Assembly: GCA_030803735.1 (NCBI GenBank)
Contig: JAURUC010000001.1
Location: 1,745,501 to 1,809,500, forward strand
Length of the DNA stretch: 64,000 nucleotides
Origin: Actinopolyspora lacussalsi
GTDB lineage: Bacteria; Actinomycetota; Actinomycetes; Mycobacteriales; Pseudonocardiaceae
Direction: 5' to 3'
In this document: piece by piece, positions 37,512 through 62,892 of the stretch
How positions within the stretch are numbered: the first letter of the stretch is position 1
Layout of the letters: each line of letters starts with the position of its first letter
The notes under the pieces: model-generated
What the model was told of the DNA's origin: nothing
Databases searched by the model: none
Seen by the model: the letters and a program-made list of their open reading frames with translations, nothing else
Program-made: the position numbers and the translations under genes

Positions 37512-38300
37512 TCACCCGCGCTCTTGCTGCCGCGTCTCCGCCAGCCGTTCGAGGATTCCCCTGGTCTTGAGTTCGGTGAGGTGCTCGGCGGCGCGCTGCG
37601 GGGCGGTCCCGCCGCGCACCCGCAGCCCCGCCTCGATGTTGCGGTCCACTCCGGACTGGGTGAGGTTGGCGCTGGAGACCAGCAGTTCGCGCCGGTCGGC
37701 GACCGCGATCTTGGCGTGGGTCCTGGAGTTGCGCTCGGTGCGCTGCCGCGGCGGCCAGTGCCACAACTCGATGCCGCCGATCCCGGCGAAGGCATCGACC
37801 GGTTCGGGGCCACCGAGCGCACCCCGCGCGCCCCGCAGGGTCTCCACGACCACGGTGACGGCCACTCCCCGCTCGACCGCCGCGCGCAGCGCCCGCCGCA
37901 GCTGCTCGTGCGGCCGTGCCGAGTAGGTCATCAGCATCAGCTCGTGGTTCGCCCGCTCGATGAGTTCGACCAGCACCCGCGCGGTGGCCCGCACCGGCAC
38001 GGGGTGGGTGCCGGGGCCGCTCCAGACCGGTTCGACCGCGATCTCGGCGGCACGGCGGTTGTATCCGGCGGTCAGTCCGCGCAGGAATCCCGCGGTCTCC
38101 TCGGCCGAGCGCCCCTCCGTCACCTGGGCGTCGAGGACGGCCCGCGCGGTCTCGGTGTACTCCTCCCCCGGCCCGGCCAGCACGGCCTGTTCCGGCCAGC
38201 CCGCCTGGATGCGGTCGGCCAGCGTGCGCAGCGCGCTCGCCCCGAGGCGGGGTAACGCCTCGGCAGCGACGCTTTCCAGCTCGGACGGTTCGCCGGTCAT
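37512..38300 (-). CDS. drmC: DISARM protein DrmC, phospholipase D-like
   Basis: 262 residues. The single HxK(x4)D motif of the phospholipase D/nuclease superfamily is in THAKIAVADRRELLVSSANL near residue 195, within the family-typical C-terminal half. MLMTYSARPHEQLRRALRAA and VTVVVETLRG form the Rossmann-like first half. A second HKD motif is absent, so an active form would dimerise. ATG 38300 is preferred to the GTG six bases upstream because the GAGGG box is correctly spaced. It is the terminal gene of drmA-drmB-drmC and lies 10 bases after drmB. Confidence 0.9.
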   Translation of the reverse strand: MTGEPSELESVAAEALPRLGASALRTLADRIQAGWPEQAVLAGPGEEYTETARAVLDAQVTEGRSAEETAGFLRGLTAGYNRRAAEIAVEPVWSGPGTHPVPVRATARVLVELIERANHELMLMTYSARPHEQLRRALRAAVERGVAVTVVVETLRGARGALGGPEPVDAFAGIGGIELWHWPPRQRTERNSRTHAKIAVADRRELLVSSANLTQSGVDRNIEAGLRVRGGTAPQRAAEHLTELKTRGILERLAETRQQERG

Positions 38301-38310
38301 GCCCACACCC

Positions 38311-40215
38311 TCACGGCCGCTCGCGGTACAGCGCCAGGTCCTCGTGCTCGTCGACGGGAACCACGAACCTGCGATCCAGGAACCGGTTGCCGCGTTCGCA
38401 GGTGGTCTCGGAGACGAACAGGCAGACGTGGCAGGCGGCGCCGTGCAGGTGGTCGGCGGGTGGCTGCGGGAGCCGCTCGGCGCACAGCGGGTCGGAGGAA
38501 CAGCGCCGCGCCTCGCTCAGCGCGCGCCGGGTCAGCCGCACCAGCCGGTCGGGTTCGGCCTGCGAGACCAGCCCGCCGAGGGTGCCCTCGGCGTCGGGCA
38601 CCGCGGTGTAGAGCAGGATGCCGCTGCGCGGGTCGTCCTCGGTGCCGGCGTAGATGCGTTCGGACAGGTTGGCCGAGCTGTAGCCGCACTCCAGGGCGAT
38701 GGTGCGGATCAGCAGGTGCGAGAGGGTGTGCAGCGCGAGATAGCGCGGGCCGGGCCAGTTGCGCATCTCGTCGAACTCGCCGGGGATGCGGTCGGAGTAG
38801 CGGTTCTTGCGGAACTCCGCGTAGGCCCGTCGGTGGCGGTGCATCGCCTGCGACTCGGCGGCGCGGCCCTCCCAGCCGAACAGCAGGTCCTCGGGCACGC
38901 GCAGGAAGATCCCCTCGCCGCGCACCTCGCTGGCGGGCACCCACTGCGGCGTAGACCGGGCCAGCGGGGCGCGGGTGACCAGCTTGGGGTCCTCCGGATC
39001 GGGCGCGTCGAGTCGGGTGAACCCGGTCAGCGCGCGGACCTCGCGCAGCCGTTCGGCCTGCACCACGTCGGCGTAGTAGCCCGCCAGTTCGGGCGGGGCT
39101 CCGATGCGCCGCAGCGTGAAGTCGTCGGTGGGTGCGGGCAGCTCGGACGCGGCGAACACCTCCCATTCGGGGGTGCGCAGGTCGGGCTGTTCGGTCTCGC
39201 TGTCCTCCTCGCTCTCCTGCTCCATCCTGGCCCGCACTCGCTCGACCGCCGCCTCGATCTCGGCGTCGCTCCAGCCGGTGAGTTCGTGGAAGGCGGGCAC
39301 GTTCTCCCGCGCGTAGGGATACATCGCGGCGGGCAGCGTGGACACCGCGTTCCAGTGCTGCTCGACCTTGGTCTCCAGCTCGCTCGCCTCGGTGCGGGGC
39401 ACCGCCAGCACCGAGAGGTTCTGCGGGAACCACTGGTTGGAGGCACCGACCGTGAGGACCTTGGGCGCGCACCCGCAGCCCTGCGGGTCGAACCGGTTCA
39501 GGTGCGGGTGCCTGCCCCGGCAGCGCGGCAGATTCTGCTCGCCGCGCTGGCCCATGGCCTGACCCATGTTTCGGTGCTCGCCGCAGCTGACGCATTTGAT
39601 CTCGACGTTGACGCCGCGGTTGCCGCCGCGGTCCTCCATCCGCAGCCGGGGCTGTTTCACCTTGGGGCACTCGGCTCCGTGGTGGACGAACTCCGGGTAG
39701 GGGAAGTCGTCCAGGTGCCCGGCGGTGCAGGAGATCAGGAACCGGGAGGAGATCGCCAGCGGCGGGGCTCCGCTCTTCTTGACGCCGCAGCCCTGGTGGA
39801 AGAACCGGGCGTCCTGCGGCCTGCGGGGCACCTCGTTCTCGAAGCCGAACACCCGCGAGTCCACCGGGGCGAGCTCGTTGCAGGCGGTGCAGCGCAACCA
39901 GGAGGGAAACGGCACGGTCGGCACGCCCACCCTGGACGCCGGACCCCGCGGGTCCTGGTCGAGGCCGTCCAGCCAGGGCGCGGGCAACAGCTCCTTGACG
40001 TTCTTGCCGAAGATGCCCTGCACCGCGGAGAGCAGTCGGGGTTCGGCGATCGGTTTCCAGTCGTGTCGGTCACGGACGTCGTTGTAGTTCCAGTCGTCGA
40101 GCCCGCGCACCAGCACGGAGAAGTTGGGCATGTCGACCAGCGCGCCGACCCCGCTGGTGAACATGAGGTGGCTCGGGCGGACCGAGCCCACGCGACGGCG
40201 ATGATTAGTGGTCAT
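38311..40215 (-). CDS. drmB: DISARM protein DrmB, DUF1998
   Basis: 634 residues from ATG 40215 with AAAGGAG upstream. The N terminus RRVGSVRPSHLMFTSGVGAL is the conserved opening of DrmB. Several Cys pairs (CTACNELA, CTAGHLDDFPYPEFVH, CVSCGEHRN, GCGCAPKV) predict structural zinc sites. The C-terminal DUF1998 domain has LHTLSHLLIRTIALECGY, GILLYTAVPDAEGTLGGL and the final CHVCLFVSETTCERGNRFLD. DrmB pairs with DrmA to form the DISARM core complex that blocks incoming phage DNA. It is separated from drmA by 324 bases containing two repeats, unlike the tight drmB-drmC junction. Confidence 0.93.
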   Translation of the reverse strand: MTTNHRRRVGSVRPSHLMFTSGVGALVDMPNFSVLVRGLDDWNYNDVRDRHDWKPIAEPRLLSAVQGIFGKNVKELLPAPWLDGLDQDPRGPASRVGVPTVPFPSWLRCTACNELAPVDSRVFGFENEVPRRPQDARFFHQGCGVKKSGAPPLAISSRFLISCTAGHLDDFPYPEFVHHGAECPKVKQPRLRMEDRGGNRGVNVEIKCVSCGEHRNMGQAMGQRGEQNLPRCRGRHPHLNRFDPQGCGCAPKVLTVGASNQWFPQNLSVLAVPRTEASELETKVEQHWNAVSTLPAAMYPYARENVPAFHELTGWSDAEIEAAVERVRARMEQESEEDSETEQPDLRTPEWEVFAASELPAPTDDFTLRRIGAPPELAGYYADVVQAERLREVRALTGFTRLDAPDPEDPKLVTRAPLARSTPQWVPASEVRGEGIFLRVPEDLLFGWEGRAAESQAMHRHRRAYAEFRKNRYSDRIPGEFDEMRNWPGPRYLALHTLSHLLIRTIALECGYSSANLSERIYAGTEDDPRSGILLYTAVPDAEGTLGGLVSQAEPDRLVRLTRRALSEARRCSSDPLCAERLPQPPADHLHGAACHVCLFVSETTCERGNRFLDRRFVVPVDEHEDLALYRERP

Positions 40216-40256
40216 AAAGCTCCTTTCCGGAGCGGCATGTCGTACGGCTTTGGGTG

Positions 40257-40371: not shown

Positions 40372-40447
40372 GTGGTTGGGCTGCGTGAGTGGTAGGAGTG
40401 CGCCCCGCGGGGGCGGTAGGTGCTCGGCACCGCGCCGAGGGCGCCGC

Positions 40448-40539: not shown

Positions 40540-43500
40540 TCACGGTTTGCGTTTGGTGGTGGGCAGTGCGGTGTCGCCGAGTTCGTCGCCCTCGGGGATC
40601 TCCTCGTCCTCGGCGTCGGGCTCGCCGTCCGGGGCGGGCGCGAAGGTCCAGGCGGGAGCGTTGTAGAGGGTCTGGAACAGCTCCTCCCCGCCGGGCACGA
40701 GCAGGTTGATCTCGTTCTCGGTCTCGCGCATCGACTGCGCCACGGTGCTGTCCCGCCAGGCGTGGTCGCCGGGCTTGGTCAGCAGCGCGCGGCGGGGCTG
40801 CTCCCCCCGTCCGGCGGAGCGACCGACGTAGCCGACCGAGTGCTCGCCGTCCTGCTCGCCGCTCCAGAGGTCCTTGGTGCGGCCGAGCCGTTCCGCCAGG
40901 TAGTCGCGCCCCCGCTGCCCCCGCACGGCTTCGGCGCGGTCGAGCATCCGTTCGGTGATGCGCTCCACCAGCGGGGAGTCCAGCGCCACTTCCTGCGCGT
41001 CGTTCTCCCCGGAGTGCGGCTCGGCGGCGTTGCGCACCGCCGCCACGAACGCGGCGGTGACTCCCCGGTCCAGCGCGCGGCGGGTGTAGGGGGTGACCGA
41101 GAGCGCCTCGACCTGCCGGTAGAAGGTGGCGTGGTAGTGCTCGAAGTCCTCGTAGTGGGCCAAATCGCGGGGCCTGGTCCAGTTGTAGAGGGTGACGACC
41201 AGCCCCGGCCCGCTGTCGGTGCGGCCCACGCGGGAGGACGCCTGGATGTACTCGGCGGTGTTCTTGGGCTGGCCGGTGACCATCATCAACCCGAACCGGG
41301 AGACGTCCACGCCGACCTGCAGCATCGAGGTGGCCAGCACCACGTCCACCGGGTCGCGGCCGTCCTTGCGGCGCTGTTCGCGGCGTGCGCTGAGCGGATG
41401 CGGCTCGGGGGTGTCCTTGCCGCGGGAGGACTTGCGCCGCTGCTCGTAGATCTCTCGCAGGTTCGCGCGGATGGCGTGGCGCCGCGTGGTGGTGTCGATC
41501 TCGGCGTCGAAACCGTTCTCCAGGTGGGTGAGCACCTCGCTGATGTCGGCCGAGGAGATGCGGGAGGTCAGCTCCTGGATGTTGAGCATCGCGGCGCGGC
41601 TGGGCAGCCGGTCGGAGATGCCGCGCCTGCGGCCGTGGGTGCGGACGCGGGTGGCCACGTCGTCGTCGAGGGAGCGCCGCATCCCGGCGAGTTCCCTGGT
41701 GGCGTTGAAGTAGCCGACCAGCGTCATGTACGGGTCGGCCGCCGCGCCGTGCTGGTCGAACAGGGTCTGCCCGGCCAGCAGCAGTATCTCGGCGACGCGG
41801 ATCTCGGCGGATTTCAGCCGCACCCCGTGGGCGCAGATCCCGAGGTAGCGCCTGCCGGGTTTGTCCGCGGTGGACACCTGGTGTGAGAAGAACGTGTCGG
41901 AGACCTCGGTGACCTGCGGCGGGAACACCGCCAGATCGCGGTTGAACACCCCGCGCACCTGCTCGCCGGAGCGTTTGGTGGTGGCGGTGGAGGCGATGAT
42001 CTTCGGCCCGGCCTCGTTGCCGCCGGGTGTGCGCCAGCAGCACAGCTCGTCCACCGCGGACTCGAACAGCCCGACGGTGGTGCCCAGCGCCCCGGAGATC
42101 AGGTGCAGCTCGTCCTGGATGATCAGGTCGGGCGCGCGCAGCCGCGCCACGGGCTTGCTGCTCACGTTCGGGTGGCCGCTCTTCTTCTGGTGCTTGTCGG
42201 CGCAGCCGGTCTCGGCGTCGAGGTCGGCGTGGCGGTAGCCGTGCCGGGGGCACCAGCGGCGCACCCGGCCGAACAGCATCCCGGCGTAGCCCTTCCAGGG
42301 CAGCTGGGCGAGCTTGTCCACGGTGGCGATGACGAGGCTGGGCAGCAGCCGGTAGATCTCCTCGTCGACGGTGAGGATGGGCAGGCCCTCGGGCGAGTGC
42401 GGTTTGGAGAACGGGCAGGCGTCGCTGCCCTCGGCGTTGGGGCAGTGCAGCAGCACCCGGCGGGTGGCGGTGTCGACCTCGGCGTCGCGGTGGGCGAGCA
42501 GCGCGGAGCCGCACCAGGGGCAGGCCAGGGTCTGCAGCACGTTGGCGCGTTTGCCGTCGCCGGCCTCGCGGGCGTCCCGGATCTGCTGCTCGGCCTGGCC
42601 GAACCAGTTGGGTGAGACGCTGCCGCCGACCCACAGTCCGATGCGGAACGGTTCGGCGCCCCAGGTGGCCTCGTCCTCGCGCCGGATCATCTCCGCCGCG
42701 CACACCAGCGCCGCGGCGCGCTGGAACTGCTGCGCGGTCAGCAGCCGCAGGGTGTAGCGCATCAGCACCGCCACCCCGGCCCCGCCGTCGCGGGCGTCCT
42801 CGCCGCTGCCGAAGGTGCCCTGCAACCGGCGGATGGCGAAGGTGAACGCGGTCAGCCCGAGGTAGGCCTCGGTCTTGCCGCCGCCGGTTGGGAAGAACAG
42901 CAGGTCGAGCACGGCGTTCGAGTCGGCTGCGCGTTCGGCGTGGTCCGGGTCGACCAGCGAGGGCAGGTTCAGCAGCACGAAGGCGAGCTGGAACGGCCGC
43001 CAGGAGGCCCCGGCCGCGCCGTTGGCCTGTACCCGCTGCTTGGCCTCGGGGTAGCCGATCTCGGTGGTCTCGCGCAGCCGCGCGAGGTCGGTGTGGCGGC
43101 GTTGGGCGGCCATGGCGCGGTTGGCGAACCGGAACGCGGCCAGCGCGTCGGCGTGCCCGGGGTGTTCGGGGTCGGTGAGCAGGTCGATGCCCGCCTGTAC
43201 CCGGTCGGCGGCGCGGCGTGCCTGGAAGACGGCGGATTCGGCGGTCTCACGCAGCGAGTCGGGCAGTTCCCGCGCTTCGGACTCGCGCTGGTCGAGCCAG
43301 CGGCGGTACCCCTCGGACAGTGGTGCCAGCCCGGCGCGCAGTTCGAACGACGCTGCGGTGGCGAGGGTGTCCATGGCGAGTTCGGTGCCCGCCAGCGGGC
43401 TGCCCTGCTGGTTGCCGGGCGCGACGGTGGCGGGGACCTCGTAGGTGGGCAGCCAGGTGGTTTCGAGCTGGTGGGCGCGGCGGGCGCCGGGGGTGGTGTG

Positions 43501-44487
43501 TGGGTGCACGGCGACGTTGTGGCCGGAGGCGTAGCGCAGCTGGCCGCGGTAGAGCAGCCGCAGGTGCTGTTCCTCCGGGTCGTCCTCGGCGGCGCTGTCG
43601 TGCAGCGGGTCGTCGGCGGGCAGGAACACCGGCGACGCGCCGTCGAGGGCGGTGACGCGCAGCCGGGTCTGGAACATCCAGGACTCCTCCTGCGGGGTGC
43701 CCTCCCGTTGCGCGTTGACCAGGGTGAGTTCCACGACGCGTTTGCCGTCGCGGTCGCGGGCGGTCACGGCCAGCAGCACGCCGGGTTCCTCGGCGGTGTC
43801 GGCGGTCAGCGGCAGGCGGTGCGAGCGGGTGCCGTCGAGCCGGACCTCGCGGCTGACCGTGACGGGTTCGCGGGTCCAGAGCCTGCGCTTGGCGCCTTCG
43901 GCGGTCTCGGTGTCCTCCTTGGCGTAGCGGCCCCATTCGACGGTGACGTGCAGCGCGGTGGTGTCCCGCGCGACGGTGCAGCTCAGCCCCATCGAGGAGG
44001 CCCAGATGCGGCCGAGGCTCTGCGGGCTGAGCACTTCGGGGGGAGCGCCGCCGCCTTCGCCGTTGGCCTCGCCGCCGGTCTCGGCCCCGGTGTCCGGCGC
44101 GGGTTCGGCGTCGGCGGTGGGGCGGGCGTCCTGTTTGGGGCCGAGCATCCCGACGAGGTAGCGCTCGCGGGGGCCGCTGGAGCCGTAGGGCAGCTGCTCG
44201 GCGTCGCCGTCCCACGGGCCGAGCAGGTCGCGCACGATGAGTTCCTGCAATCCGTCGCGCACTTCGGCGCCGCTGGTATCGGGGAACCGCTGCTCGGTGT
44301 CCAGCAGCCGGGTCGGGTCCGGCCGCGCGTCGGCGTCCTCTCCGCCCGCGCCGGTGTCGCGGGTGCCGCCTTTACCGCCCAAGCCGGTGCCGCCCGAGCG
44401 GCGCGCCGTGCCGGTGGGCATGTCGAGGCTGCCCTGTTCACCGTTGGGGTTCATGAACAGTCCGTCCGAGCTGTCCGGGGTGGTCAT
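40540..44487 (-). CDS. drmA: DISARM helicase DrmA
   Basis: 1315 residues. SF2 helicase of the DISARM core: Walker A FFPTGGGKTEAYLGL near residue 531, DEXH-type motif IIQDELHLISG near 793, SATTKRSGEQVRGVFNRDL, MLQVGVDVSRFGLMMVTGQP near 1059 and the final ASSRVGRTDSG motif. The N-terminal 500 residues are accessory, with an Ala/Gly/Asp-rich stretch near 20-60 and 140-160. DrmA with DrmB binds DNA with 5' ends and prevents phage genome establishment. Start ATG 44487; a partial copy of its first 85 bases recurs at 45896-45985. It is separated from drmMI by an 11-kb insertion. Confidence 0.93.
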   Translation of the reverse strand: MTTPDSSDGLFMNPNGEQGSLDMPTGTARRSGGTGLGGKGGTRDTGAGGEDADARPDPTRLLDTEQRFPDTSGAEVRDGLQELIVRDLLGPWDGDAEQLPYGSSGPRERYLVGMLGPKQDARPTADAEPAPDTGAETGGEANGEGGGAPPEVLSPQSLGRIWASSMGLSCTVARDTTALHVTVEWGRYAKEDTETAEGAKRRLWTREPVTVSREVRLDGTRSHRLPLTADTAEEPGVLLAVTARDRDGKRVVELTLVNAQREGTPQEESWMFQTRLRVTALDGASPVFLPADDPLHDSAAEDDPEEQHLRLLYRGQLRYASGHNVAVHPHTTPGARRAHQLETTWLPTYEVPATVAPGNQQGSPLAGTELAMDTLATAASFELRAGLAPLSEGYRRWLDQRESEARELPDSLRETAESAVFQARRAADRVQAGIDLLTDPEHPGHADALAAFRFANRAMAAQRRHTDLARLRETTEIGYPEAKQRVQANGAAGASWRPFQLAFVLLNLPSLVDPDHAERAADSNAVLDLLFFPTGGGKTEAYLGLTAFTFAIRRLQGTFGSGEDARDGGAGVAVLMRYTLRLLTAQQFQRAAALVCAAEMIRREDEATWGAEPFRIGLWVGGSVSPNWFGQAEQQIRDAREAGDGKRANVLQTLACPWCGSALLAHRDAEVDTATRRVLLHCPNAEGSDACPFSKPHSPEGLPILTVDEEIYRLLPSLVIATVDKLAQLPWKGYAGMLFGRVRRWCPRHGYRHADLDAETGCADKHQKKSGHPNVSSKPVARLRAPDLIIQDELHLISGALGTTVGLFESAVDELCCWRTPGGNEAGPKIIASTATTKRSGEQVRGVFNRDLAVFPPQVTEVSDTFFSHQVSTADKPGRRYLGICAHGVRLKSAEIRVAEILLLAGQTLFDQHGAAADPYMTLVGYFNATRELAGMRRSLDDDVATRVRTHGRRRGISDRLPSRAAMLNIQELTSRISSADISEVLTHLENGFDAEIDTTTRRHAIRANLREIYEQRRKSSRGKDTPEPHPLSARREQRRKDGRDPVDVVLATSMLQVGVDVSRFGLMMVTGQPKNTAEYIQASSRVGRTDSGPGLVVTLYNWTRPRDLAHYEDFEHYHATFYRQVEALSVTPYTRRALDRGVTAAFVAAVRNAAEPHSGENDAQEVALDSPLVERITERMLDRAEAVRGQRGRDYLAERLGRTKDLWSGEQDGEHSVGYVGRSAGRGEQPRRALLTKPGDHAWRDSTVAQSMRETENEINLLVPGGEELFQTLYNAPAWTFAPAPDGEPDAEDEEIPEGDELGDTALPTTKRKP

Positions 44488-44981
44488 TTACGGTTGTGCT
44501 CCCTCTCGGTGGCTCTTCTGGGGCGGTGGCTCGCTGTCGGTGGCTCGTCCGGGGTCGGTCGGGGGAGACAGCTCCACGGACCGGGAAGCCGGTACACCGC
44601 CGCGCCGCGCCGGTCCGGCGGTGCCGCGCGGCACCGCTTCGCGCACGCGCCCCGGCCGGTACGGGGATCACGCGGTTCGGTGATCATCTCGATTTCTCTC
44701 ACACGGGTCCGACACCGGTTGCCGCGCCGGGCGGCTCGCCCGGAGACTCCTCGAACAAGGTGTCCAACGGCGGACTTCCTCGAAGTCCTGTCCGCCGGGC
44801 GCGAGGATCGTCGTCCCACCAGTGGCAGAGGATAAACCAGCTCACGGCGGAGTTGGCCCGGAATTCGCATACATCGGATACCGATCGTTCAACGGACCTG
44901 ACCGAGCGCGTACGGCGTGCCAGTACGCGTCCGGCGTGCTCGCGAGCGCTTTCGCCGACAGGGCACGTGTGGAACCGCCGC
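44488..44981. other. 494-base gap upstream of drmA
   Basis: No gene recognised. It carries GC-rich, slightly repetitive sequence, presumably the present drmA promoter acquired or exposed after the insertion of the winged-helix/membrane cassette. Confidence 0.4.
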
Positions 44982-45742: not shown

Positions 45743-45895
45743 CAAAAAACGAAACAGCGCGCTGAGGTCAACCACTGCCCCGCGAGCTCGTCGCGGCGAT
45801 CCGCTCTGTGATCACATTCAAGGTGGTCGCCACGTCCAGCCACGAGGCTGGCCTGCTCACACCCCGGAAGCTGAGTGCCGCAAGCGATCCCCTTT

Positions 45896-45985: not shown

Positions 45986-45987
45986 GC

Positions 45988-47235: not shown

Positions 47236-47236
47236 G

Positions 47237-53951: not shown

Positions 53952-55502
53952 TCATGCGACGATCTGGCGAATAGCCTCAGCCACGGCGAGAGTGACAGCC
54001 CCGGCGAGCACGGCCGCGCTTGCGCATCCGCCGCCACCGGCGGCTGCTTTCTCGGAATCGCTTGCACCGCCACGCCGCTCGTAGGGCTGGAGGAACATGC
54101 TGTAGTACTGCCCTCCGTTGAGCTCCCGGCGACGCCAGAACTGGTGCCACTCTGGAGGTCCCTGCTGCGTTTCAGCTGCTTTTTCGGCGTTCAACCGTTC
54201 GGCTGCCTGCTGACCATCGGAATCGTTGAACAGGGAACCCGCGGATTGCTCGATCACATCCCGCAGCTTCCGTTCCCCCTCATCAGGAGAAAGTACCTCG
54301 ATGCCCTGATCGCGCGCTTTGGCCAGGCGGGAATCATCACCTGATACCTCGTCGGCGATGACCATCCGGACAGTCTTGGTGGGATTGATCGCAACAGCGG
54401 CCCCGTGGGATGCCGCCATGTCCATGACGGCGCTGATCCGCTCCGACTCGCCAACCGGAAGGATTCGCCACCCTTTGAGCGGACCGTTGCGTCTGGCCTT
54501 GTCAGCGGCCGCCGCCGCCTCAAGATCGCTGATCAGATGACTGGCAGCGAGTTCCTTACCAGCGCGAGTGAGTTCCTTGAGTTCCGTAGCGGTAACTTTT
54601 CCGTCCGCTTCCGCCTGCGCACGGGCTTCTGTCAGGAAATCCTCGTGTACCTGCCGAGCCGTACTCTGGGTGAGCCCCGCACGAGCAGCGAACACGGCGA
54701 GCTGAGTGGCTTCCTCCCCCACCACACGACCGTCGCTGAGTGCGTGGCCGAGCATCGAGCGGTAATCGGCCAGTTGTTCGGCTCTGGGTACGGGTGGGTT
54801 TGTCATGTACGGCAGGCGCGCTGTCAGTGTGGCAAGCCATCCTTCGGTGCCTTTGCGCAGTCCGGCAGCGCGCGGAGCGATACTTCCGGTCCGGGGATGC
54901 TCCGGTAACGTGACCGGCGATTTCCCATCCCACGAAAGTTGCTGCGGTGCTTCGTTGATGAGACGCGCCAGGGTGGCGGCGAGAGAACGAGCATCCCCCA
55001 GCGCGGAATGCCAGGCGCTGGGCCACTCGCCGGTCACGAGGTTGACGACGTTCTCCAGTCGGTAACCGTAGCGGTCGAGCTGGGACCGCGCCAGAACAAG
55101 ACTGCACAATCCCGGCACTTTCCGAATGTCCATACCGAGGCGGCCGAACTCGGCGGAGAGGAACTTTTCCTCGTACGGCAGGTTGTGGCTGACCACCACC
55201 GCGTCGCTGAGAAAAGCCAGCAGATCTCCGGCTATCTGCTCGAACGTGGGCGCGGTTTTCACCTCGGTGTTGGTGATGCCGTGGTGTTCCTCGTTGTTGA
55301 TCCGCACACCCGGATTCACCAGGGTCGAGTACTCGTCCAGCACCGTGCCGTCGCCACGCATTCGGACGACGCCGACCTCGCAGACCCGAGATCCCTTGTT
55401 CGGATGGAGCCCGGTGGTTTCGAAATCGAGCACCGCGAAAGTCAGACCACGCGGGTCCACCCCCTGCTTGCGGGTGAGTTTGGTATAAGCGAAAGTGAAC
55501 AC
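53952..55502 (-). CDS. DnaQ-like 3'-5' exonuclease with TerB-like and BRCT-like domains
   Basis: 516 residues from GTG 55502, supported by GGAGG seven bases upstream; a GTG at 55544 that overlaps the drmMI stop is the alternative. DEDDh exonuclease domain: AVLDFETTGLHP near residue 24, VVVSHNLPYEEKFL near 105, and WHSALGDARSLAATLARL near 165. Residues 225-330 look like a TerB domain (YRSMLGHALSDGRVVGEEAT, AEADGKVTATELKELTRAG). A BRCT-like domain spans 345-430 (GWRILPVGESERISAVMDMA). A Gly/Cys-containing hydrophobic helix at 490-512 could anchor it to the membrane. Placement directly after drmMI suggests an accessory DISARM nuclease. Confidence 0.82.
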   Translation of the reverse strand: MFTFAYTKLTRKQGVDPRGLTFAVLDFETTGLHPNKGSRVCEVGVVRMRGDGTVLDEYSTLVNPGVRINNEEHHGITNTEVKTAPTFEQIAGDLLAFLSDAVVVSHNLPYEEKFLSAEFGRLGMDIRKVPGLCSLVLARSQLDRYGYRLENVVNLVTGEWPSAWHSALGDARSLAATLARLINEAPQQLSWDGKSPVTLPEHPRTGSIAPRAAGLRKGTEGWLATLTARLPYMTNPPVPRAEQLADYRSMLGHALSDGRVVGEEATQLAVFAARAGLTQSTARQVHEDFLTEARAQAEADGKVTATELKELTRAGKELAASHLISDLEAAAAADKARRNGPLKGWRILPVGESERISAVMDMAASHGAAVAINPTKTVRMVIADEVSGDDSRLAKARDQGIEVLSPDEGERKLRDVIEQSAGSLFNDSDGQQAAERLNAEKAAETQQGPPEWHQFWRRRELNGGQYYSMFLQPYERRGGASDSEKAAAGGGGCASAAVLAGAVTLAVAEAIRQIVA

Positions 55503-55540
55503 AACCGGGCCTCCGTTCCGGTTTGGCAAGGGGATTCGGG

Positions 55541-58500
55541 TCACTCGAACAGCTTCGGCTCGTCATCCTGGTTGGTGGGTTTTTTAGCCGTGGCTTTTTT
55601 GGTGGTGCCCTTTTTCTTGTCGTGCAGGCCCTGGGCGACTTCCTGTTGGTAGCGCTCGTGGTTGAGTTCGAGCAGGCTGTCCAGGATCTCGCGCTGGGCC
55701 GCGGGGCCGATGGTGTAGCGGGTCTCGCGGCCGACCGGGTGGAAGCCGTGGTCCAGGCCGCCGACCGCGTCGATGCGATCCTGCCAGCCGTAGGCGCGCA
55801 CCGTGGCCTCGTCGATCTCGCGATGAATCCGTCGCAGCTCTCGAACGTCCGAATCCGTGCACTCCGGATCGAACACCAGGTTGTAGGTCTTGGTAAGCCC
55901 AGAATCCCGCGTGAGCATCACGTCCCGGCGATAGCGATCCAACTCGTCACCGAGATCCCGGAGTTCCTGAGTGAGTTCCGGCAGCGGGAATGTTTCAAAT
56001 ACGTTAGAAGGAATATAGCGAAAATCAGCCTTCATCTTCGAGCCGTACGCCTTTGCCCACAAGTAGTGTTGCGCGCTTGACAATATCGCCAATCTTCCAG
56101 GATCATCGAAAGCAAATACAATCAACATATGAGAAAATACTTGCCCTTCAGGAACCATAACAGGCATTGCTGTCCGGCTTGTCTGAGCAATCGCCACCAC
56201 TCGCTCTAAATCAGCGATAGCCGAATGAAGATTGGGCCTTGTAGCAAGGAACTGCCACCATCGCTCACGTGCACTAGAGCTGTATTTATTATTTTCGCGC
56301 TCTGGACGCACTAGCCGTGCAACTTGATTATAGCAGTCCTTGTACTCTTTAGCTTTCCACTCAGGCCAATCATGGAAGTTTATAACCCAACGACTGGGGG
56401 AAGTATCAGGATTCGAATTTAGATCGCTTCCATTGAGATACGGAAACAAAACATCGTTATTTTTGTGATCTTTCTCAATAAGATCTCTCGCACTACTGAC
56501 ATCCATCGTAAAACCAGTGCCAAGTATGTTACTCCCTTGAAAAGCGATGCCTTGATTTGAAACGAGCCTTTCAGGGTTTCCTTGAGCTCTAGATTTAGGA
56601 TCGAGCGAAGATTCAATCCCAGAAACCGGAATTTCGTCAGAAATAATACTTGCTGAACCAGGAACAGTGTAACTAGTTATCCAAACGGCACAGTACTCCA
56701 GCATCGCCGACCTCGATGGCCACGGCTTAGACTTCACAGAACGCCTGATTGTGTTTCCGTCACCAACGATCTGATCCAGCCCGACACGTCTACTGTCACC
56801 TTGAGCCAGCGTGTTTGTGGCGATGATGCCGGATTGACCGCATTCGTTGAGCAACTGATGAAGTCGGAGTGCGAAATAAGCAACTAGATCACCGGTGCCA
56901 CGAACTCCTCGTACGCCACGCCCCAGGTGGTTAACCAGATAATCCCGGTAGCTGTCTCCCAATGCGGTCTGTAGCTTCAGCCCACCCAAGAACGGCGGGT
57001 TCCCCACCACCGCATCGAAACCACCGTCCTCGAAGACCTCGGGGAAGACCAGCGGCCAGTGCAGCGTGTCGCGGCCGAAGTTGCCCGCGGGCAGGTCGGT
57101 GTCCAGCCACTCGCGGGCCTGCTCGCGTGCGCGGGCCTCGTCGGTGTGCATCCGCCGCGCGTGGTCGGCGGCGGCGATGGAGCCGTCACGCAGCCCCTTC
57201 TCGCCACGCCCGGCGTGCGCCAGCGCGGCGCCGACGGTGAGATCCGCGGCCAGCTCGGCCCGCCTGCCCTTGAGGTTGGCCTCGGCCAGCAGCGCCCGCT
57301 TGCGGTTCAAACCCTCCAGGGTGGTGCCGTCGATCTCGCGCAGCTCGCGACGCTGCTCGGCCACCTCGGACACCAGCGAACGAACATCGGCGGTGAAGTC
57401 CACGGGGGACCGCTCGTGGATCGCCCTGCCCTTCTTGGCGTCCAGGTGCATGTACTCCAGCTGCTCCAGCGAGGTGATCCCCAACAACGAGTCCCCCGCC
57501 ACCAACCGGTCATCCAGGAAGGTGAACGGCCGCTGGGAATCCATCGACACCAACCACAGCGAGAGCTTGGCCATCTCCACCGCCATCGGGTTGATGTCCG
57601 CGCCGTACAGGCAGTGCTCGATCACCTGCCTGCGCGCCTCCACCACCGCCGGGTCCTCCTCGCTGTCCCCGGCGTGCTCCTGCGGCTGGTACTCGCGCAC
57701 CCGCTCGTCGTCCTCGGCGATCCAGGCCTCCAGCAGCCTGCCGCCCAGATACCGCGCCGCGGCCACCAGGAACGCGGCCGAGCCCATCGCGATGTCGGCC
57801 ACCCGCAGCTTGAGGATCTCGCCGCTGGGCTTGAGCCGCCACTCGCGCTGCTCGGCCGTGGTCAACGGCCCCGGCTCGTAGACCAGCGGCTCCAGCGCGT
57901 GGCGCACCACGTCCTCGGCCAGGAACCGCGGCGTGTAGTGCGTGCCGGTGTTGGCGCGCAGCGGCGACTCGGTGACGAACAGCTCCCCGCCCAGCACCAC
58001 CACCGGCAGCTCGCGCAGATCGTCGCGGATCACGCCCCGGAACGGCAGCAGCCGCTCGGTCAGCGCGGCATCGCCCCTGGTGACGCCGAGCAGCTTCTTG
58101 CGCCGCTCCTCCCGCTCCACCGCGTCCGGCGGGGCGAGCCGCTTGGCCAGCTGCTTGGCCGTGCCGATGCCGGAGTCCTTGAACTCGGCCGCCAGCGTCT
58201 CGGCCAGCTCAGTGGTGTCGGCGCTGGCGGCGGCGAGCTCCTCCAGCCGCCGCAGCGGCACCTCGGCCTCCCTGCCCTGCTTGCCGACCAGCCCCACGGT
58301 GGTGTCCTCGGCGCGGAACCCGTCGTAGGAGAGCAGGCCCTCGTAGACGTAGCCGATCTGCTCCACGTCCAGCGTGCGGAACGACAGGGTGCGCCGCTCG
58401 CGCGACTTGCCGCTGCCCACCCAGACGTGCTGCACCGAGCGCAGCATGTGCAGCACGGTGCGGTCGTCGATGTTCAGCGGCAGCCACGGGAACGCGTCCG

Positions 58501-59749
58501 GGTCGAACAGCGAACCGTCGTGCGGGTGCATCGTCAGCCTGGGATGGGTCACGCCCCGGTAGACCGCCTCGAACAGCGCCAGCAGCCGGTACCAGCCGGT
58601 GTAGGTCTGCTGCAGGTCCTCCTCGCTGGACTCCAGCTCGCGCCGCTCCAACTCGTCGTAGAGCCGCCCCGCCGAGTAGGTGGTGGCATACAGCTCGTTG
58701 TCCGAGGGCAGCAGCCTGCGCTCCTCGGCGAACAGCAGGAACACCACGCGCATCATCACTGACACCGTGCCGCGGTAGACCTCGTGCGCGGCCACCGAGT
58801 CCAGTTCGGACTCGCCACGGCGGCGCTGCTCGGTGCTGGCCCGGCCGAACGCCGCCACCAGCAGCTCCACCGCCTCACGCACCTGCACGCCCAGGGCCTC
58901 GGTGATCTCCTCCTGCGAGTCCTCGCTGGCCTGGAGCAGCTCGGGCAACCGCTCGCCCGCCGGCACCGCGAAGAACCGCTTGCGCCCCAGCAGCGAGACG
59001 AAGGCGCGCACCACGTCGCGTTCGGCGGCCTCCGGCCACGGCACCGCGTCGAACACGGCCGTGGTGGTCACCCCGGTGCGCGGGGCGCGCACCAGCGCCC
59101 ACCAGCGGCCGTCGGTGACCAGGCCGAGCTCGACGCCGTGGTGGCGGCACAGCTGGGCCAGCCGATCGGCGGGCGTGGCGGCCCAGCTGGAACCGGCGAG
59201 GCGGGCGGTGGGCTGCTGGCCCGGCTCGCAGACCATGCCGAGCAGCCGCACCGCGTCCGGCTTGACCTGCTCGGCCGACTCGTCCGGCTCGCCTGGCTCG
59301 ACCGACTCGGCTGGCTCGACCCACTCTGCTGGCTCGACTCGCTCGTCCGATTCGGACCGCTCGCCCGGCTCGGCCCGCCCGCCCTGCTCGACGTGCTCGT
59401 CGGGTTCGACCAGCGCGAAGGAGGGCGCCAGCCGGGTGTCGTGCTCGGCCACGTCGAGCGAGAGCCCCTCCAGCCCCTCGCGGCGCAGCCGCTCGCCCCA
59501 GCCGAGCAGCTCGCCGAGCACGTAGTCGATCCAGTCCCGCTGCCCCGCGGCCACGTCGGCCTGCCAGGCCGAGTGCGCGCGACGCAGCCGCTGCCTGGTG
59601 GGCTTGTCCAGCGCGTCCGGCCCGCTCGGCCAGTGCCGCTTGAGCACCGGCAGCGAGAGGAACGGGCCGCTCACCTCGACCAGGTCCAGCCACTCGCGGT
59701 GCTGCTCGGCTGCGTCCGGTGCCTTGCGGTGGAACGGTTTCGGGCTCAT
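55541..59749 (-). CDS. drmMI: DISARM adenine methyltransferase DrmMI (PglX-like class I methylase)
   Basis: 1402 residues. Long N-terminal half with an acidic Glu/Pro/Val-repeat linker near 120-160. S-adenosylmethionine site ADIAMGSAAFLVAAARYLGG near 655; catalytic motif NPPF near 915, which marks N6-adenine methylation. The target-recognition region from about 957 to 1253 is encoded by markedly AT-richer DNA. The C terminus is Lys-rich. DrmMI marks host DNA so that DISARM spares it. Start ATG 59749 overlaps the drmD stop (ATGA). It resembles PglX of BREX, but no pglZ or brxC is present and drmA/B/C/D are. Confidence 0.9.
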   Translation of the reverse strand: MSPKPFHRKAPDAAEQHREWLDLVEVSGPFLSLPVLKRHWPSGPDALDKPTRQRLRRAHSAWQADVAAGQRDWIDYVLGELLGWGERLRREGLEGLSLDVAEHDTRLAPSFALVEPDEHVEQGGRAEPGERSESDERVEPAEWVEPAESVEPGEPDESAEQVKPDAVRLLGMVCEPGQQPTARLAGSSWAATPADRLAQLCRHHGVELGLVTDGRWWALVRAPRTGVTTTAVFDAVPWPEAAERDVVRAFVSLLGRKRFFAVPAGERLPELLQASEDSQEEITEALGVQVREAVELLVAAFGRASTEQRRRGESELDSVAAHEVYRGTVSVMMRVVFLLFAEERRLLPSDNELYATTYSAGRLYDELERRELESSEEDLQQTYTGWYRLLALFEAVYRGVTHPRLTMHPHDGSLFDPDAFPWLPLNIDDRTVLHMLRSVQHVWVGSGKSRERRTLSFRTLDVEQIGYVYEGLLSYDGFRAEDTTVGLVGKQGREAEVPLRRLEELAAASADTTELAETLAAEFKDSGIGTAKQLAKRLAPPDAVEREERRKKLLGVTRGDAALTERLLPFRGVIRDDLRELPVVVLGGELFVTESPLRANTGTHYTPRFLAEDVVRHALEPLVYEPGPLTTAEQREWRLKPSGEILKLRVADIAMGSAAFLVAAARYLGGRLLEAWIAEDDERVREYQPQEHAGDSEEDPAVVEARRQVIEHCLYGADINPMAVEMAKLSLWLVSMDSQRPFTFLDDRLVAGDSLLGITSLEQLEYMHLDAKKGRAIHERSPVDFTADVRSLVSEVAEQRRELREIDGTTLEGLNRKRALLAEANLKGRRAELAADLTVGAALAHAGRGEKGLRDGSIAAADHARRMHTDEARAREQAREWLDTDLPAGNFGRDTLHWPLVFPEVFEDGGFDAVVGNPPFLGGLKLQTALGDSYRDYLVNHLGRGVRGVRGTGDLVAYFALRLHQLLNECGQSGIIATNTLAQGDSRRVGLDQIVGDGNTIRRSVKSKPWPSRSAMLEYCAVWITSYTVPGSASIISDEIPVSGIESSLDPKSRAQGNPERLVSNQGIAFQGSNILGTGFTMDVSSARDLIEKDHKNNDVLFPYLNGSDLNSNPDTSPSRWVINFHDWPEWKAKEYKDCYNQVARLVRPERENNKYSSSARERWWQFLATRPNLHSAIADLERVVAIAQTSRTAMPVMVPEGQVFSHMLIVFAFDDPGRLAILSSAQHYLWAKAYGSKMKADFRYIPSNVFETFPLPELTQELRDLGDELDRYRRDVMLTRDSGLTKTYNLVFDPECTDSDVRELRRIHREIDEATVRAYGWQDRIDAVGGLDHGFHPVGRETRYTIGPAAQREILDSLLELNHERYQQEVAQGLHDKKKGTTKKATAKKPTNQDDEPKLFE

Positions 59750-62700
59750 CGGGTCGCCTCTCGCTTCGGCACGACAACGATCACGGCTACGGGGAAACGG
59801 TGCGGTTCCTGCTCGCGGTAGCGCTCGGCGATCACGCCGAGCTCGCGGTCCCGCTCGGTGGCGAGCTGATCCAGCCGCTGCTGCCACTTCTGCCGGTCGC
59901 GGCGGTACTGGGCGCGCTCCTCCCGGCTGCGGCTGACGTCGGCGCGGCTGAACAGCGCCTCCTCCGCCTGGTCCTCGTCCTCGGCCAGCTTGGCGCGCAG
60001 CGTGCTCGCGAACTGGTCGATGACGGTGTTGATGCGCTCCCGCTCGGCCTCCTCGCGCTGGGCCAGCGTGCGCCGCAGCGAGTCCCGCCGGGTGTTGGTG
60101 CGCCAGTCGATGGCCGAGAGCAGACCGTCCCGGACCTTCGGCCAGCGGCCCACGATCCGGTTCCACACCGGCGGGGGCGCGGGGGTGCCGTCGGTCAGCG
60201 CGCGGTCCAGGATGCCGCCGAGCGTGCTGAGGTTCTCCAGCCTGCGGAACCGCCCGTTGGCCGGTGCCCAGCCGCCCGCGTGGATGACCTCCTCGTGCAG
60301 CCGCACCCCGTCGGCGCCGACCAGCACGAACCGCGAGTACGCGCCGACGAGCACGTCCTCCAGTTCGGGATCGTCGCTGACCACCGCGGTCACCCGGTGC
60401 AGCTCCGAGTTCTCGTTGGACACCGCCGAGCGCAGCAGGCCGGTCGACATCGACACCAGCGGGTGGTTGAGGTGAGCCAGCACCACGTCGTCGCGGCCCT
60501 CGGCCACGGCCGGGTCGAAGGTCACCGGCAGCTGGCGCGGTTGCTCGGCGGTTCGCGACCGGTCGGTTTCGACCGGTTTCTCGGTCAGCCCCTCGGTGGC
60601 GCGGGTCCAGGAGCCGGTCAGTGCGGGCACGTCGTACAGCGTCCCGGGCACGGGGGCCTCGCGGTCGTCGACGTGCTCGCGCAGCGGCTGCTGCCCGGCC
60701 AGTTCCAGCGCGGTGTCGACCACGCGTTTGACGCGCCGCGGGGTGGTTCCCAGTTCGCTGACCGTGCGGTCGAGGTTCTGCCGCAGCTTGCGGACCTGCT
60801 CGCGCACGTTCGACTCCACCACGAGCCGGTCCTTCGTGCTGCCCGCGCTGTCCACCTCGTCGTCGCGAACGGTCTGGCCGAGCATCCGGCGCTGCACCTT
60901 GTCCGAGAGCACCGCGTTGACCGACCCCAGGTCCTCGGCCATGCGGGCGACCTTGTCGGCCACCCGGGCGAGGAACTCCAGATCCGCCTCGTAGGAGTCC
61001 ACGGCGCCGTCCCAGCCCGTGCCGACGAAGTGCCGGACCTCGGGAACCCGGCTCTGGCCGTAGCGGTCGATGCGGCCGATGCGCTGTTCCAGCTTGTTCG
61101 GGTTGAACGGGATGTCGTAGTTGACCAGCCGGTGGCAGTGCTTCTGCAGGTCGATGCCCTCGCTGGCCGCGTCGGTGGCGAGCAGGATGCGCAGCGGGTG
61201 CTCGCTCGGGTGCTTCTGGAAGGCCAGCCGCAGCCGCTCGCGCTCCTCGGTGCTCATGCCGCCGTGCAGCTCGGCCAGCTTGTCACCGCCGAGGCCCTCC
61301 TGCCGCAGCAGGTTGGCCAGCCACTGCTGGGTGTCGCGGTACTCGGTGAACACCACGACGCGCTCGTCGGTCCAGTCCCGGTCCGGTTTGCACACGTACT
61401 GGAGGTGCTTGATCAGCTCGCGGGCCTTGGCGTCGGGCTGGGCCTCGTGCGAGCGCGCCCACTCCCGCATCCGCTCCAGCAGCCCGATCTCGTCCTCGGC
61501 CGGGTCCGGCTGCATCGGGCGGGTGCGGTCCAGCGCGTCGTCCTCGGCGTCGGCCATGTGCTCGTCGTCGTAGGTGGCGAGCTCGTCGAAGAACTCGTCC
61601 ATCCACTCCGGAACGTCGTCGTCGAGCTGAGCCGAGCCGGACCGCGAGCGCAGCGTGTCCAGATACACCCCCACGGTGTGCTCGAACGCTGCGGGGCTGG
61701 AGAACAGCCGCTTCTTCAGCAGCAGCGTCACCAGGTCGGTGGCCTTGCGGCCCCGGCGGGAGGCGAGCTTGTCGCGGCGAGCGGCGGCGAACCGGGTCAG
61801 CAGGCCGTGGATCTCGCGCTCGCTGTCCGGGTACTCCACCGGGATCGCCATCGCGTGGCGGCGGGCGAAGCGCGGATTGCCCTCGGCGTCGGTGATCTCG
61901 GTCTTGAGCCGCCGCACCACGGTCTCGTCCACCGCCGCCCGATCCGGCTCCACGCCGCGGGCGAACCGCTGGTCGTCGAGGATCTCCAGCAGCGCGGTGA
62001 ACGACGCCTGGTAGCCGTTGTGCGGGGTGGCCGAGAGGAACAGCCGGTGCGTGAAGTGCGGGGCCAGCGTGCGGATCAGCTTGGTCTGCTGCGAGTCCAC
62101 GGCGTAGACCTGCTTCGGCGCGGCCGGGGCCGCGTGGTGGGCCTCGTCCAGGATGAGCAGGTCGAAGGTGCGCGGGTAGGTCGGTCCTCCGGCGGGCAGC
62201 ACCTCGTTAAGCAGCCGCTGCGCCTTGGCGCCACGCAGCCAGGGCAGGCTGACGATGGCCTTGGGGAAGATGTTGAACGGGTTGGCCGCGCTGCCGTACT
62301 CGCGGCGCACCCGCGCGCAGCACTCGGAGTCGATGACCGTGAAGTCCAGGCCGAACTTCTCGGCCATCTCGTCGCGCCACTTGGCGGTCAACCCGGCCGG
62401 GCAGACGATCATGATGCGCTTGCCGCGCTGGCGCAGCAGCAGCTCCTGGGCCACCAGACCGGCCTCGACGGTCTTGCCCAGGCCCACGTCGTCGGCCAGC
62501 AGCAGGTTCACGCGCGGGGAGTCCATGGCGCGGGCGACCGGTTCGAGCTGGTAGTCCTCGATCGCCACGCCCGAGCGGAACGGCGCCTGCAGCGTCTTCA
62601 CGTCGGCCGAGGTCACCGCCGACCAGCGCACCGCGTCCAGGAACGCGGCCAGGCGTTCCGGCGGATCGAAGTCCTGTTCGGGCAGCTCCGGCAACGAACC

Positions 62701-62892
62701 GGCGGGCAGCACCTGCCTGCCCGGTTCGAGTTCCCAGAGCACCTCCAGCATCTCGCCGTAACGGCCGTCCTCCACGCTCTGCAGCCCCACCAGGGTGCTG
62801 GTCTCGCCCTGGTCGACCTCGCTGACGACCCACTTCTGCCCACGGACCGAGACCAGCGCACCGGTCTCCAGTCCCTCACTGGTCGTTGTCAT
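59746..62892 (-). CDS. drmD: DISARM SNF2-like helicase DrmD
   Basis: 1048 residues. SNF2/SF2 ATPase: Walker A LLADDVGLGKTVEAGLVAQE near 132, DEAHH near 249, SATPHNGYQASF near 288, C-terminal VVFTEYRDTQQWL, LLATDAASEGIDLQ and RIGRIDRYGQSR near 607. Residues 700-1048 are helical, ending in a charged coiled coil (LAQREEAERERINTVI). DrmD defines class 1 DISARM. ATG 62892 begins the leftward run, with its promoter in the 163-base gap to the next gene. Confidence 0.93.
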   Translation of the reverse strand: MTTTSEGLETGALVSVRGQKWVVSEVDQGETSTLVGLQSVEDGRYGEMLEVLWELEPGRQVLPAGSLPELPEQDFDPPERLAAFLDAVRWSAVTSADVKTLQAPFRSGVAIEDYQLEPVARAMDSPRVNLLLADDVGLGKTVEAGLVAQELLLRQRGKRIMIVCPAGLTAKWRDEMAEKFGLDFTVIDSECCARVRREYGSAANPFNIFPKAIVSLPWLRGAKAQRLLNEVLPAGGPTYPRTFDLLILDEAHHAAPAAPKQVYAVDSQQTKLIRTLAPHFTHRLFLSATPHNGYQASFTALLEILDDQRFARGVEPDRAAVDETVVRRLKTEITDAEGNPRFARRHAMAIPVEYPDSEREIHGLLTRFAAARRDKLASRRGRKATDLVTLLLKKRLFSSPAAFEHTVGVYLDTLRSRSGSAQLDDDVPEWMDEFFDELATYDDEHMADAEDDALDRTRPMQPDPAEDEIGLLERMREWARSHEAQPDAKARELIKHLQYVCKPDRDWTDERVVVFTEYRDTQQWLANLLRQEGLGGDKLAELHGGMSTEERERLRLAFQKHPSEHPLRILLATDAASEGIDLQKHCHRLVNYDIPFNPNKLEQRIGRIDRYGQSRVPEVRHFVGTGWDGAVDSYEADLEFLARVADKVARMAEDLGSVNAVLSDKVQRRMLGQTVRDDEVDSAGSTKDRLVVESNVREQVRKLRQNLDRTVSELGTTPRRVKRVVDTALELAGQQPLREHVDDREAPVPGTLYDVPALTGSWTRATEGLTEKPVETDRSRTAEQPRQLPVTFDPAVAEGRDDVVLAHLNHPLVSMSTGLLRSAVSNENSELHRVTAVVSDDPELEDVLVGAYSRFVLVGADGVRLHEEVIHAGGWAPANGRFRRLENLSTLGGILDRALTDGTPAPPPVWNRIVGRWPKVRDGLLSAIDWRTNTRRDSLRRTLAQREEAERERINTVIDQFASTLRAKLAEDEDQAEEALFSRADVSRSREERAQYRRDRQKWQQRLDQLATERDRELGVIAERYREQEPHRFPVAVIVVVPKREATR

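What the first reader, a model, noticed from the sequence alone, without database searches (positions are those of the whole stretch)
37512..62892. Class 1 DISARM system split into two halves by about 11 kb of inserted genes
drmD-drmMI (55.5-62.9 kb) and drmA-drmB-drmC (37.5-44.5 kb) are all leftward and complete by motif inspection, but they are separated by an exonuclease, a duplicated regulator module, three small genes, a DUF262-HipA pair and a winged-helix/membrane cassette. DISARM genes normally sit together (established knowledge). The inserts include other defence-type genes, so the locus may be a nested defence island, or drmA-C may now be expressed separately.
Basis: partly seen in the sequence, partly recalled or inferred. 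Interest (0 to 1): 0.75.

Follow-up and report, generated by a model that had tools for sequence, protein, structure and literature searches.

The report
DISARM defence locus with gene-insertion hub
A complete anti-phage DISARM system in an Actinopolyspora bacterium is split by 11 kb of extra genes; relatives show that this one internal gap is repeatedly filled with other genes, defence genes among them, and in three Streptomyces with what looks like a DNA switch for changing the system's target sequence.

Summary
PADLOC models place DrmD, DrmMI, DrmA, DrmB and DrmC at the stated coordinates, all leftward, with 11.05 kb between drmMI and drmA. The host is Actinopolyspora.

The split is not a local accident. 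All six Actinopolyspora genomes found with this system (window included) have genes at this junction, with differing cargo (Shedu SduA, Schlafen AlbA_2, exonuclease PDC-S48, DUF262-HipA). Among 43 measurable named actinobacterial loci, 31 have over 1 kb there and 12 have 24-359 bp; the other three junctions never exceed 0.5 kb (0 of 29, 0 of 56, 0 of 53). A DrmA tree forces at least 8 switches of state. So drmMI|drmA is a recurrent insertion hub.

Two linked findings. The DrmMI target-recognition domain is exchanged between Actinopolyspora species (down to 32% identity between flanks of 92-100%). In three Streptomyces, drmMI is followed by an inverted spare recognition cassette, near-identical inverted repeats and a tyrosine recombinase found in only those three of 291 genomes. 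This looks like phase-variable DISARM; inversion itself was not observed, and the window has no such module.

The parts
59746..62892 (-). drmD, SNF2-type helicase, 1048 aa
   Evidence: PADLOC DrmD models; SNF2-rel_dom and Helicase_C; 98-99% identical in G134, G177, G038
55541..59749 (-). drmMI, adenine methyltransferase of MmeI/Eco57I type, 1402 aa
   Evidence: PADLOC DrmMI; Eco57I, MmeI_Mtase, MmeI_TRD; NPPF at 916
56030..57112 (-). recognition-domain block of drmMI (about aa 880-1240), exchanged between Actinopolyspora species; GC 0.44-0.58
   Evidence: sliding identity; MmeI_TRD Pfam match aa 1084-1266
53952..55544 (-). S48: DEDDh-type exonuclease, 530 aa; start overlaps the drmMI stop by 4 nt (GTGA)
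   Evidence: PADLOC PDC-S48 776 bits; RNase_T; DnaQ/PolC-type chains; overlap; 97% in A. righensis, 61% in Prauserella alba
53411..53830 (-). 139-aa gene of unknown function, part of the repeated module
   Evidence: no Pfam match at 0.01 for the longer reading; one to four copies in G134, G177, G038
52869..53414 (-). DUF3558 putative lipoprotein, copy 2
   Evidence: ORF; repeat
51668..52213 (-). DUF3558 putative lipoprotein, copy 1
   Evidence: PF12079
52567..52758 (+). DUF397-like gene, copy 2 (family name recalled, not scanned)
   Evidence: ORF; repeat
51366..51557 (+). DUF397-like gene, copy 1 (family name recalled, not scanned)
   Evidence: ORF
50518..51369 (+). XRE regulator with DUF5753
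   Evidence: PF19054, PF13560
49815..50222 (-). small gene of unknown function
   Evidence: no Pfam match; 87-90% relatives in G134, G177, G038
49502..49825 (-). 107-aa gene of unknown function
   Evidence: no Pfam match; relatives in all five sister genomes
47237..48949 (-). DUF262 (GmrSD_N) protein, 570 aa
   Evidence: PF03235; PADLOC PDC-M55C
45988..47298 (-). HipA-like kinase; follows DUF262 directly in 9 of 9 fetched relatives
   Evidence: HipA_C, Couple_hipA
45895..45981 (-). scar: 87 nt copy of the drmA 5' end
   Evidence: shared breakpoint with G134
45284..45691 (-). small membrane-protein gene, 135 aa (membrane nature read from the sequence)
   Evidence: ORF; 90-96% in G097, G134, G177, G038
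44982..45287 (-). winged-helix regulator, 101 aa
   Evidence: HTH_34; 97-98% in G097, G134, G177, G038
44488..44981 (-). 494-bp region upstream of drmA; candidate promoter region of drmABC (inferred; one search found no sigma-70-type site)
   Evidence: coordinates; similarity to sister genomes
40540..44487 (-). drmA, YprA-family helicase, 1315 aa
   Evidence: PADLOC DrmA; 7s9v; TGGGKTE, DELH, SRVGR
38311..40215 (-). drmB, DUF1998/MZB protein
   Evidence: PADLOC DrmB; MZB
37512..38306 (-). drmC, phospholipase-D-type nuclease
   Evidence: PADLOC DrmC; PLDc_2; HAKIAVAD

Best explanation
This is a complete class 1 DISARM system whose one internal boundary, between the modification half (drmD-drmMI) and the effector half (drmA-drmB-drmC), acts as a hub where extra genes are inserted and exchanged. 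Shown by sequence: the five genes are complete; in the sample this boundary is opened many times while the other three are not; in Actinopolyspora the insert carries changing defence-type cargo; the DrmMI recognition domain has been exchanged between species. Inferred: DrmMI marks host DNA at adenines, DrmAB with DrmD acts on unmarked DNA, and DrmC or a recruited nuclease (S48 is coupled to drmMI here) degrades it; a new recognition domain re-sets the self-mark; DUF262-HipA is a separate defence or toxin-type module riding in the locus; drmABC are read from their own promoter.
For: Profile matches. Junction statistics: DrmMI>DrmA over 1 kb in 31 of 43 loci by coordinates and 20 of 33 with sequence in hand, against 0 of 29, 0 of 56 and 0 of 53 over 0.5 kb at the other junctions. 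At least 8 changes of state forced on the DrmA tree of 44 rows. Cargo with defence-type domains: SduA, SLFN_AlbA_2; MTES_1575, UvrD, GmrSD, Type ISP; SoFic, MkoA-like, Ppl-like. Recognition-domain exchange. S48 also lies between a drmMI and drmA in Prauserella alba.
Against: Loci were found with patterns from the window's DrmA, so the sample is not random. Of 10 cargo proteins scanned singly, 7 had no PADLOC match; transposase cores matched in 4 of 68 scanned cargo proteins, so part of the cargo is not defence. No comparison with other genomic sites was made, so enrichment of defence genes is not shown. S48 relatives also occur away from DISARM (Thermobifida) and weaker ones in genomes without a DrmA match. 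No promoter-like site was found upstream of drmA. Activity, methylation and expression are untested.
Confidence: 0.8

Rival explanations
1. Neutral insertion: the boundary is only the place where insertions do least harm, and the cargo has nothing to do with DISARM.
For: Cargo is very mixed, includes transposases and proteins without any defence match, and differs between sister species. State changes on the tree are no more clustered than shuffled labels (172 of 500 shuffles as low).
Against: Defence-type domains recur in unrelated loci; S48 is found at the junction in two genera and overlaps the drmMI stop here; in three Streptomyces a drmMI-specific inversion module lies at the drmMI end of the junction.
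Confidence: 0.35
2. Ancestral split: drmD-drmMI and drmABC were separate units that became adjacent in some lineages, so contiguous loci are derived.
For: In 14 of 14 rows of the main Streptomycetaceae clade of the tree the halves lie 8-33 kb apart; split loci are the majority.
Against: Contiguous loci are scattered over several families, and the halves keep gene order and strand in all 43 measured loci (this was a condition of counting), which suits insertion into an operon better. Direction of change was not tested with an outgroup.
Confidence: 0.15
3. Assembly or annotation artefact.
For: None found.
Against: The window's genome is a single 5.03 Mb contig; the interruption lies on one contig in G134, G177, G038 and G072.
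Confidence: 0.01

Closest known systems
Class 1 DISARM (DrmAB of Serratia, PMC9142583, passages read; class 1 named in PMC12458937, abstract and passages read)
   Same: Five matching proteins; DrmA matches the solved DrmA 7s9v.
   Different: 11 kb of other genes between drmMI and drmA; exchanged DrmMI recognition domain; exonuclease overlapping the drmMI stop.
BREX island with the GmrSD-family enzyme BrxU (PMC8565348, passages read)
   Same: A methylation-based defence system sharing one island with a further, independent restriction enzyme.
   Different: Here the host system is DISARM, cargo lies at one fixed internal boundary, and the window's DUF262 protein lacks the GmrSD_C nuclease domain.
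PDC-S48 (PADLOC phage-defence candidate)
   Same: Whole-length match, 776 bits.
   Different: Here it overlaps the drmMI stop by 4 nt, which suggests co-expression with DISARM (inferred).
Type I restriction systems that switch hsdS by inversion (PMC7394358 and PMC4948785, abstracts in listings only) and, from recall, BREX pglX inversion loci
   Same: For the Streptomyces loci L127, L137 and L138: inverted spare recognition segment, long near-identical inverted repeats, recombinase alongside.
   Different: The gene is drmMI of DISARM, a single-chain MmeI-like methyltransferase. No listed title or abstract in my searches describes this for DISARM; inversion not observed.

Membership tests
Class 1 DISARM | DrmA and DrmB core proteins | tested here: met
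Class 1 DISARM | DrmD and the adenine methyltransferase DrmMI (class 1 pair; class definition recalled) | tested here: met
Class 1 DISARM | DrmC phospholipase-D-type nuclease | tested here: met
   11,053 bp between drmMI and drmA; also not met at this junction in 31 of 43 relatives, so not a defining feature in this group
Class 1 DISARM | protection against phage and host methylation | not testable with these tools
   needs plaque assays and a methylome
GmrSD type IV restriction enzyme (window DUF262 protein) | GmrSD_N together with GmrSD_C | tested here: not met
   only GmrSD_N at E up to 0.01
Phase-variable methyltransferase locus (Streptomyces L127, L137, L138) | inverted repeats joining the active gene to an inverted spare recognition segment | tested here: met
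   246 bp 98.8%, 266 bp 99.6%, 41 bp 100% plus 359 bp 93.9%; spare segments match MmeI_TRD
Phase-variable methyltransferase locus (Streptomyces L127, L137, L138) | site-specific recombinase alongside | tested here: met
   Phage_integrase match for L137, the other two 65-70% identical to it
Phase-variable methyltransferase locus (Streptomyces L127, L137, L138) | both orientations present in a population | not testable with these tools
   one assembly per species, no reads
Phase-variable methyltransferase locus (the window) | inverted spare segment or recombinase at drmMI | tested here: not met
   only short 70-89% inverted pairs; best recombinase match in the window E=0.14

The most novel reading that the evidence does not exclude
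Class 1 DISARM re-specifies itself. In some lineages spare recognition-domain cassettes and a dedicated recombinase are kept at the drmMI|drmA boundary, so that a cell line can invert part of drmMI and change its self-mark; in lineages without the recombinase (the window's genus) the same segment is exchanged between species next to changing cargo. DISARM would then be a switchable, modular immune system rather than a fixed one.
Probability: 0.55. Interest if true: 0.78.

Novelty: new variant of a known kind. Interest (0 to 1): 0.62.

Why it matters
Tools that ask for adjacent genes can miss or break split DISARM systems, which are the majority in this actinobacterial sample (31 of 43). The gap is a natural collecting place for candidate defence genes. 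Recognition-domain exchange, and a likely inversion switch in relatives, give a testable route by which DISARM can change its self-mark, which bears on how phages that carry the host's methylation escape it.

Tried and rejected
Assembly artefact: rejected (single contig; interruption on one contig in four relatives).

One mobile element as the whole insert: not supported. No tRNA gene in the window, and the layers differ between relatives. I did not search systematically for element ends.

An inversion module in the window: rejected. The recombinase also gave 0 matches in 396 sampled phylum genomes, the window's own among them; the tool notes that an empty answer without a positive control shows little.

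S48 as a DISARM-only gene: not upheld.

Reading the GC dip as recent arrival of the whole insert: dropped, because the core insert is shared within the genus.

A promoter upstream of drmA: the consensus scan found none, and two terminator-like sites on the opposite strand against 1.0 expected; the scan does not cover actinobacterial promoters well.
Full report
What is there. The window lies in a single 5.03 Mb contig. Its nearest named relatives are Actinopolyspora: DrmA is 98% identical to A. righensis, 97% to A. mzabensis and 96% to A. xinjiangensis. Genome G097 is listed as the same species as the window; its drmA contig has the same length, 24,476 bases, as that of the A. righensis record. 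The five DISARM proteins match PADLOC models, and DrmA matches the solved DrmA chain 7s9v. Pattern checks found NPPF in DrmMI, TGGGKTE, DELH and SRVGR in DrmA, HAKIAVAD in DrmC and only DEAH in DrmD, where Pfam gives SNF2 and helicase domains.

The insert is layered. Ten genomes of the genus were searched, the window's included; six have this system by DrmA and DrmMI (G000, G097, G134, G177, G038, G072), four have no DrmMI match (G117, G150, G165, G188). Compared with the window, G097, G134, G177 and G038 share a core: the 139-aa gene, DUF397-like and XRE genes, the 107-aa gene, and the membrane and winged-helix genes; the XRE protein is only 43-45% identical in G134 and G038, and G097 is read across a contig break. 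G072, the most distant (DrmA 81%), keeps only XRE, DUF397-like and 107-aa genes. The repeated module varies in number: four copies of the 139-aa gene in G038, two in G177, one in G134 and in the window, where DUF397 and DUF3558 are doubled. The cargo differs: S48 exonuclease in the window and A. righensis (97%); a Shedu-type SduA protein in G177 and a protein of the same cluster in G072; a Schlafen AlbA_2/HATPase protein in G134 and an OrfB/IS605-type protein in G072; DUF262-HipA in the window only. The drmMI-drmA gap is 11.05 kb in the window, 8.7 in G134, 8.3 in G177, 11.8 in G038 and 8.9 in G072; in A. righensis the contig break prevents measurement.

A scar. Just after the hipA stop, 87 nt of the drmA 5' end are repeated at 95% identity. 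G134 has a related remnant at the same right-hand breakpoint, preceded there by about 330 bp similar to the region upstream of drmA, while in G038, G097 and G177 similarity to the window begins only at or just after that breakpoint. So cargo seems to have arrived beside the membrane/winged-helix genes by a recombination that carried a piece of a drmA start. As the window's species-mate lacks scar and DUF262-HipA while another species has a scar, exchange of cassettes between lineages is more likely than one old insertion (inference).

Recognition-domain exchange. In an alignment of six Actinopolyspora DrmMI proteins in blocks of 100 columns, the blocks from 200 to 600 are 96-100% identical among the five close ones (82-94% with G072), and the block at 1300 is 92-97% (85-88% with G072). 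Between them, the blocks at 900, 1000, 1100 and 1200 fall to 56-97, 44-73, 32-60 and 60-94% among the five. This includes the MmeI_TRD match at aa 1084-1266, and GC in the window falls to 0.44-0.58. Against a uniform picture: the window and A. righensis still agree at 97% in block 900; G038 and G072 are 64-95% in these blocks, closer there than most pairs; G177 diverges already from block 700. A second variable block (100-200) looks like an acidic linker. The two S48 carriers share their C-terminal tail.

How general is the split. From the 56 DrmA loci plus 12 stretches fetched later, DrmD>DrmMI is over 0.5 kb in 0 of 29, DrmA>DrmB in 0 of 56, DrmB>DrmC in 0 of 53, and DrmMI>DrmA over 1 kb in 20 of 33 (Actinomadura latina is counted twice there, measured to a drmMI fragment). 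By genome coordinates, DrmMI was searched in 50 of the 56 genomes and matched in 49. In 43 a DrmMI lies upstream on the same strand: 31 over 1 kb, up to 33 kb, and 12 at 24-359 bp. Seven rows were dropped: L033, L049 and L072 (DrmMI on another contig or strand), L063 (no match), L065, L069 and L084 (match not upstream by coordinates). In L050 the DrmMI is itself broken. The sample was drawn with the window's DrmA and is not random. A quick DrmA tree of 44 rows needs 10 changes of state, 8 of them forced by starred branches; the states are about as scattered as shuffled labels.

Cargo elsewhere. My own simple gene caller gave 204 ORFs in 30 gap sets (24 from other genera, Prauserella alba counted twice, and 6 from Actinopolyspora). 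Of these 68 went into family scans. Single scans named an MTES_1575 nuclease with AAA domains, UvrD helicases, a full GmrSD, an ADP-ribosylglycohydrolase, a Type ISP enzyme and an HSP70-NYN protein, and SoFic, MkoA-like and Ppl-like proteins. In one search two of nine and seven of ten proteins had no match. Integrase-core transposases matched in 4 of 68. By clustering, the UvrD and MTES_1575 types occur in 7 and the GmrSD type in 6 of 8 Streptomycetaceae gap sets; the family was read on one member of each.

DUF262-HipA is a module. In 200 genomes of the family, 21 (window included) have the DUF262 protein at E up to 1e-40. Ten loci were fetched, one of them the window; in all nine others HipA follows at once, 55-64% identical. 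The window's DUF262 protein has no GmrSD_C domain. A defence or toxin-antitoxin role is inferred.

S48. Relatives at E up to 1e-40 were found in 9 of 50 genomes with this DrmA and 17 of 200 of the family. It lies between drmMI and drmA in the window, A. righensis and Prauserella alba, where it follows the second of two drmMI copies; in two Nocardiopsis it lies on the DISARM contig about 7.5-12 kb upstream of drmD on the other strand; in Thermobifida it is elsewhere.

A likely switch in Streptomyces. DrmMI pieces led to three loci with an opposite-strand spare copy of the DrmMI C-terminal part: S. calidiresistens (L127) and the unnamed L137 and L138. Inverted repeats of 246 bp (98.8%), 266 bp (99.6%) and 41 bp (100%) plus 359 bp (93.9%) link active gene and spare, while the recognition sequence beyond or between them diverges strongly. 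Beside the spare is a tyrosine recombinase, 65-70% identical in the three. It was found in 3 of 291 genomes of the genus sample, the same three. All three repeats include the same 39-bp stretch that codes for PEVFxIxERxVKP, and in L138 this is nearly all of the first repeat: a candidate crossover site. In L137 spare and recombinase fill the roughly 2 kb between drmMI and drmA; in L138 they come first, with about 8 kb more before drmA; in S. calidiresistens drmA lies on another contig. These are 3 of 29 genomes with a DrmMI C-terminal match out of 295. A fourth, different case is L126 (G194): a drmMI broken by an ORF that reads like a transposase (not scanned), two convergent recognition segments with a 1258-bp repeat at 80%, and a serine recombinase next to drmA. 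Inversion itself was not seen; one assembly per species is held.

Literature. Passages read: PMC9142583, PMC12458937 (also outline and abstract), PMC8565348, PMC9716671. PMC9142583 states that DISARM operons typically hold a methyltransferase with DrmA, DrmB, DrmC and auxiliary genes, that DrmC appears non-essential, and proposes recruitment of another nuclease, which gives S48 a possible part. No listed title or abstract start (one search found no paper) describes split DISARM, recognition-domain exchange or inversion in DISARM. Several of these lists were capped (20 of 84, 15 of 34), and the library holds open-licence papers only, so this is not proof of absence.

Verdict. A real, complete class 1 DISARM with an interruption that is older than the species of its genus and common in the wider group. 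The window is a new variant of a known kind; the more surprising lead is the switch module in relatives.

Noticed in passing
L137:11860-18157; L127:5728-11756; L138:2073-8258: Streptomyces drmMI followed by an inverted spare recognition cassette, near-identical inverted repeats and a tyrosine recombinase: likely phase-variable DISARM.
   Followed up: partly
L126:5068-13219 (G194): drmMI broken by an ORF that reads like a transposase, two convergent recognition segments (1258-bp inverted repeat, 80%) and a serine recombinase beside drmA.
   Followed up: partly
window 45988-48949; L145-L153: DUF262 (GmrSD_N only) followed directly by a HipA-like kinase in 9 of 9 fetched relatives: a conserved two-gene module, perhaps a defence or toxin-antitoxin pair.
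   Followed up: partly
window 40265-40370 and 49367-49473: A dispersed repeat of about 106-110 nt, in inverted orientation, in the drmA-drmB spacer and downstream of the 107-aa gene; similar copies in sister genomes.
   Followed up: no
L121 and L047 (Prauserella alba); L051 (Nonomuraea sediminis); L139 (G368): Two drmMI copies in or beside one DISARM locus, in L139 facing each other about 3.6 kb apart.
   Followed up: no
window 32428-37379: A 1367-aa and a 283-aa gene on the opposite strand follow drmC; both are conserved there in G097, G134 and G177 but were not matched in the stretches fetched for G038 and G072.
   Followed up: no
L050:2385-8708 (Planomonospora): drmMI matches in separate pieces, with 3 kb of other genes between aa 1007 and 1307.
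   Followed up: no
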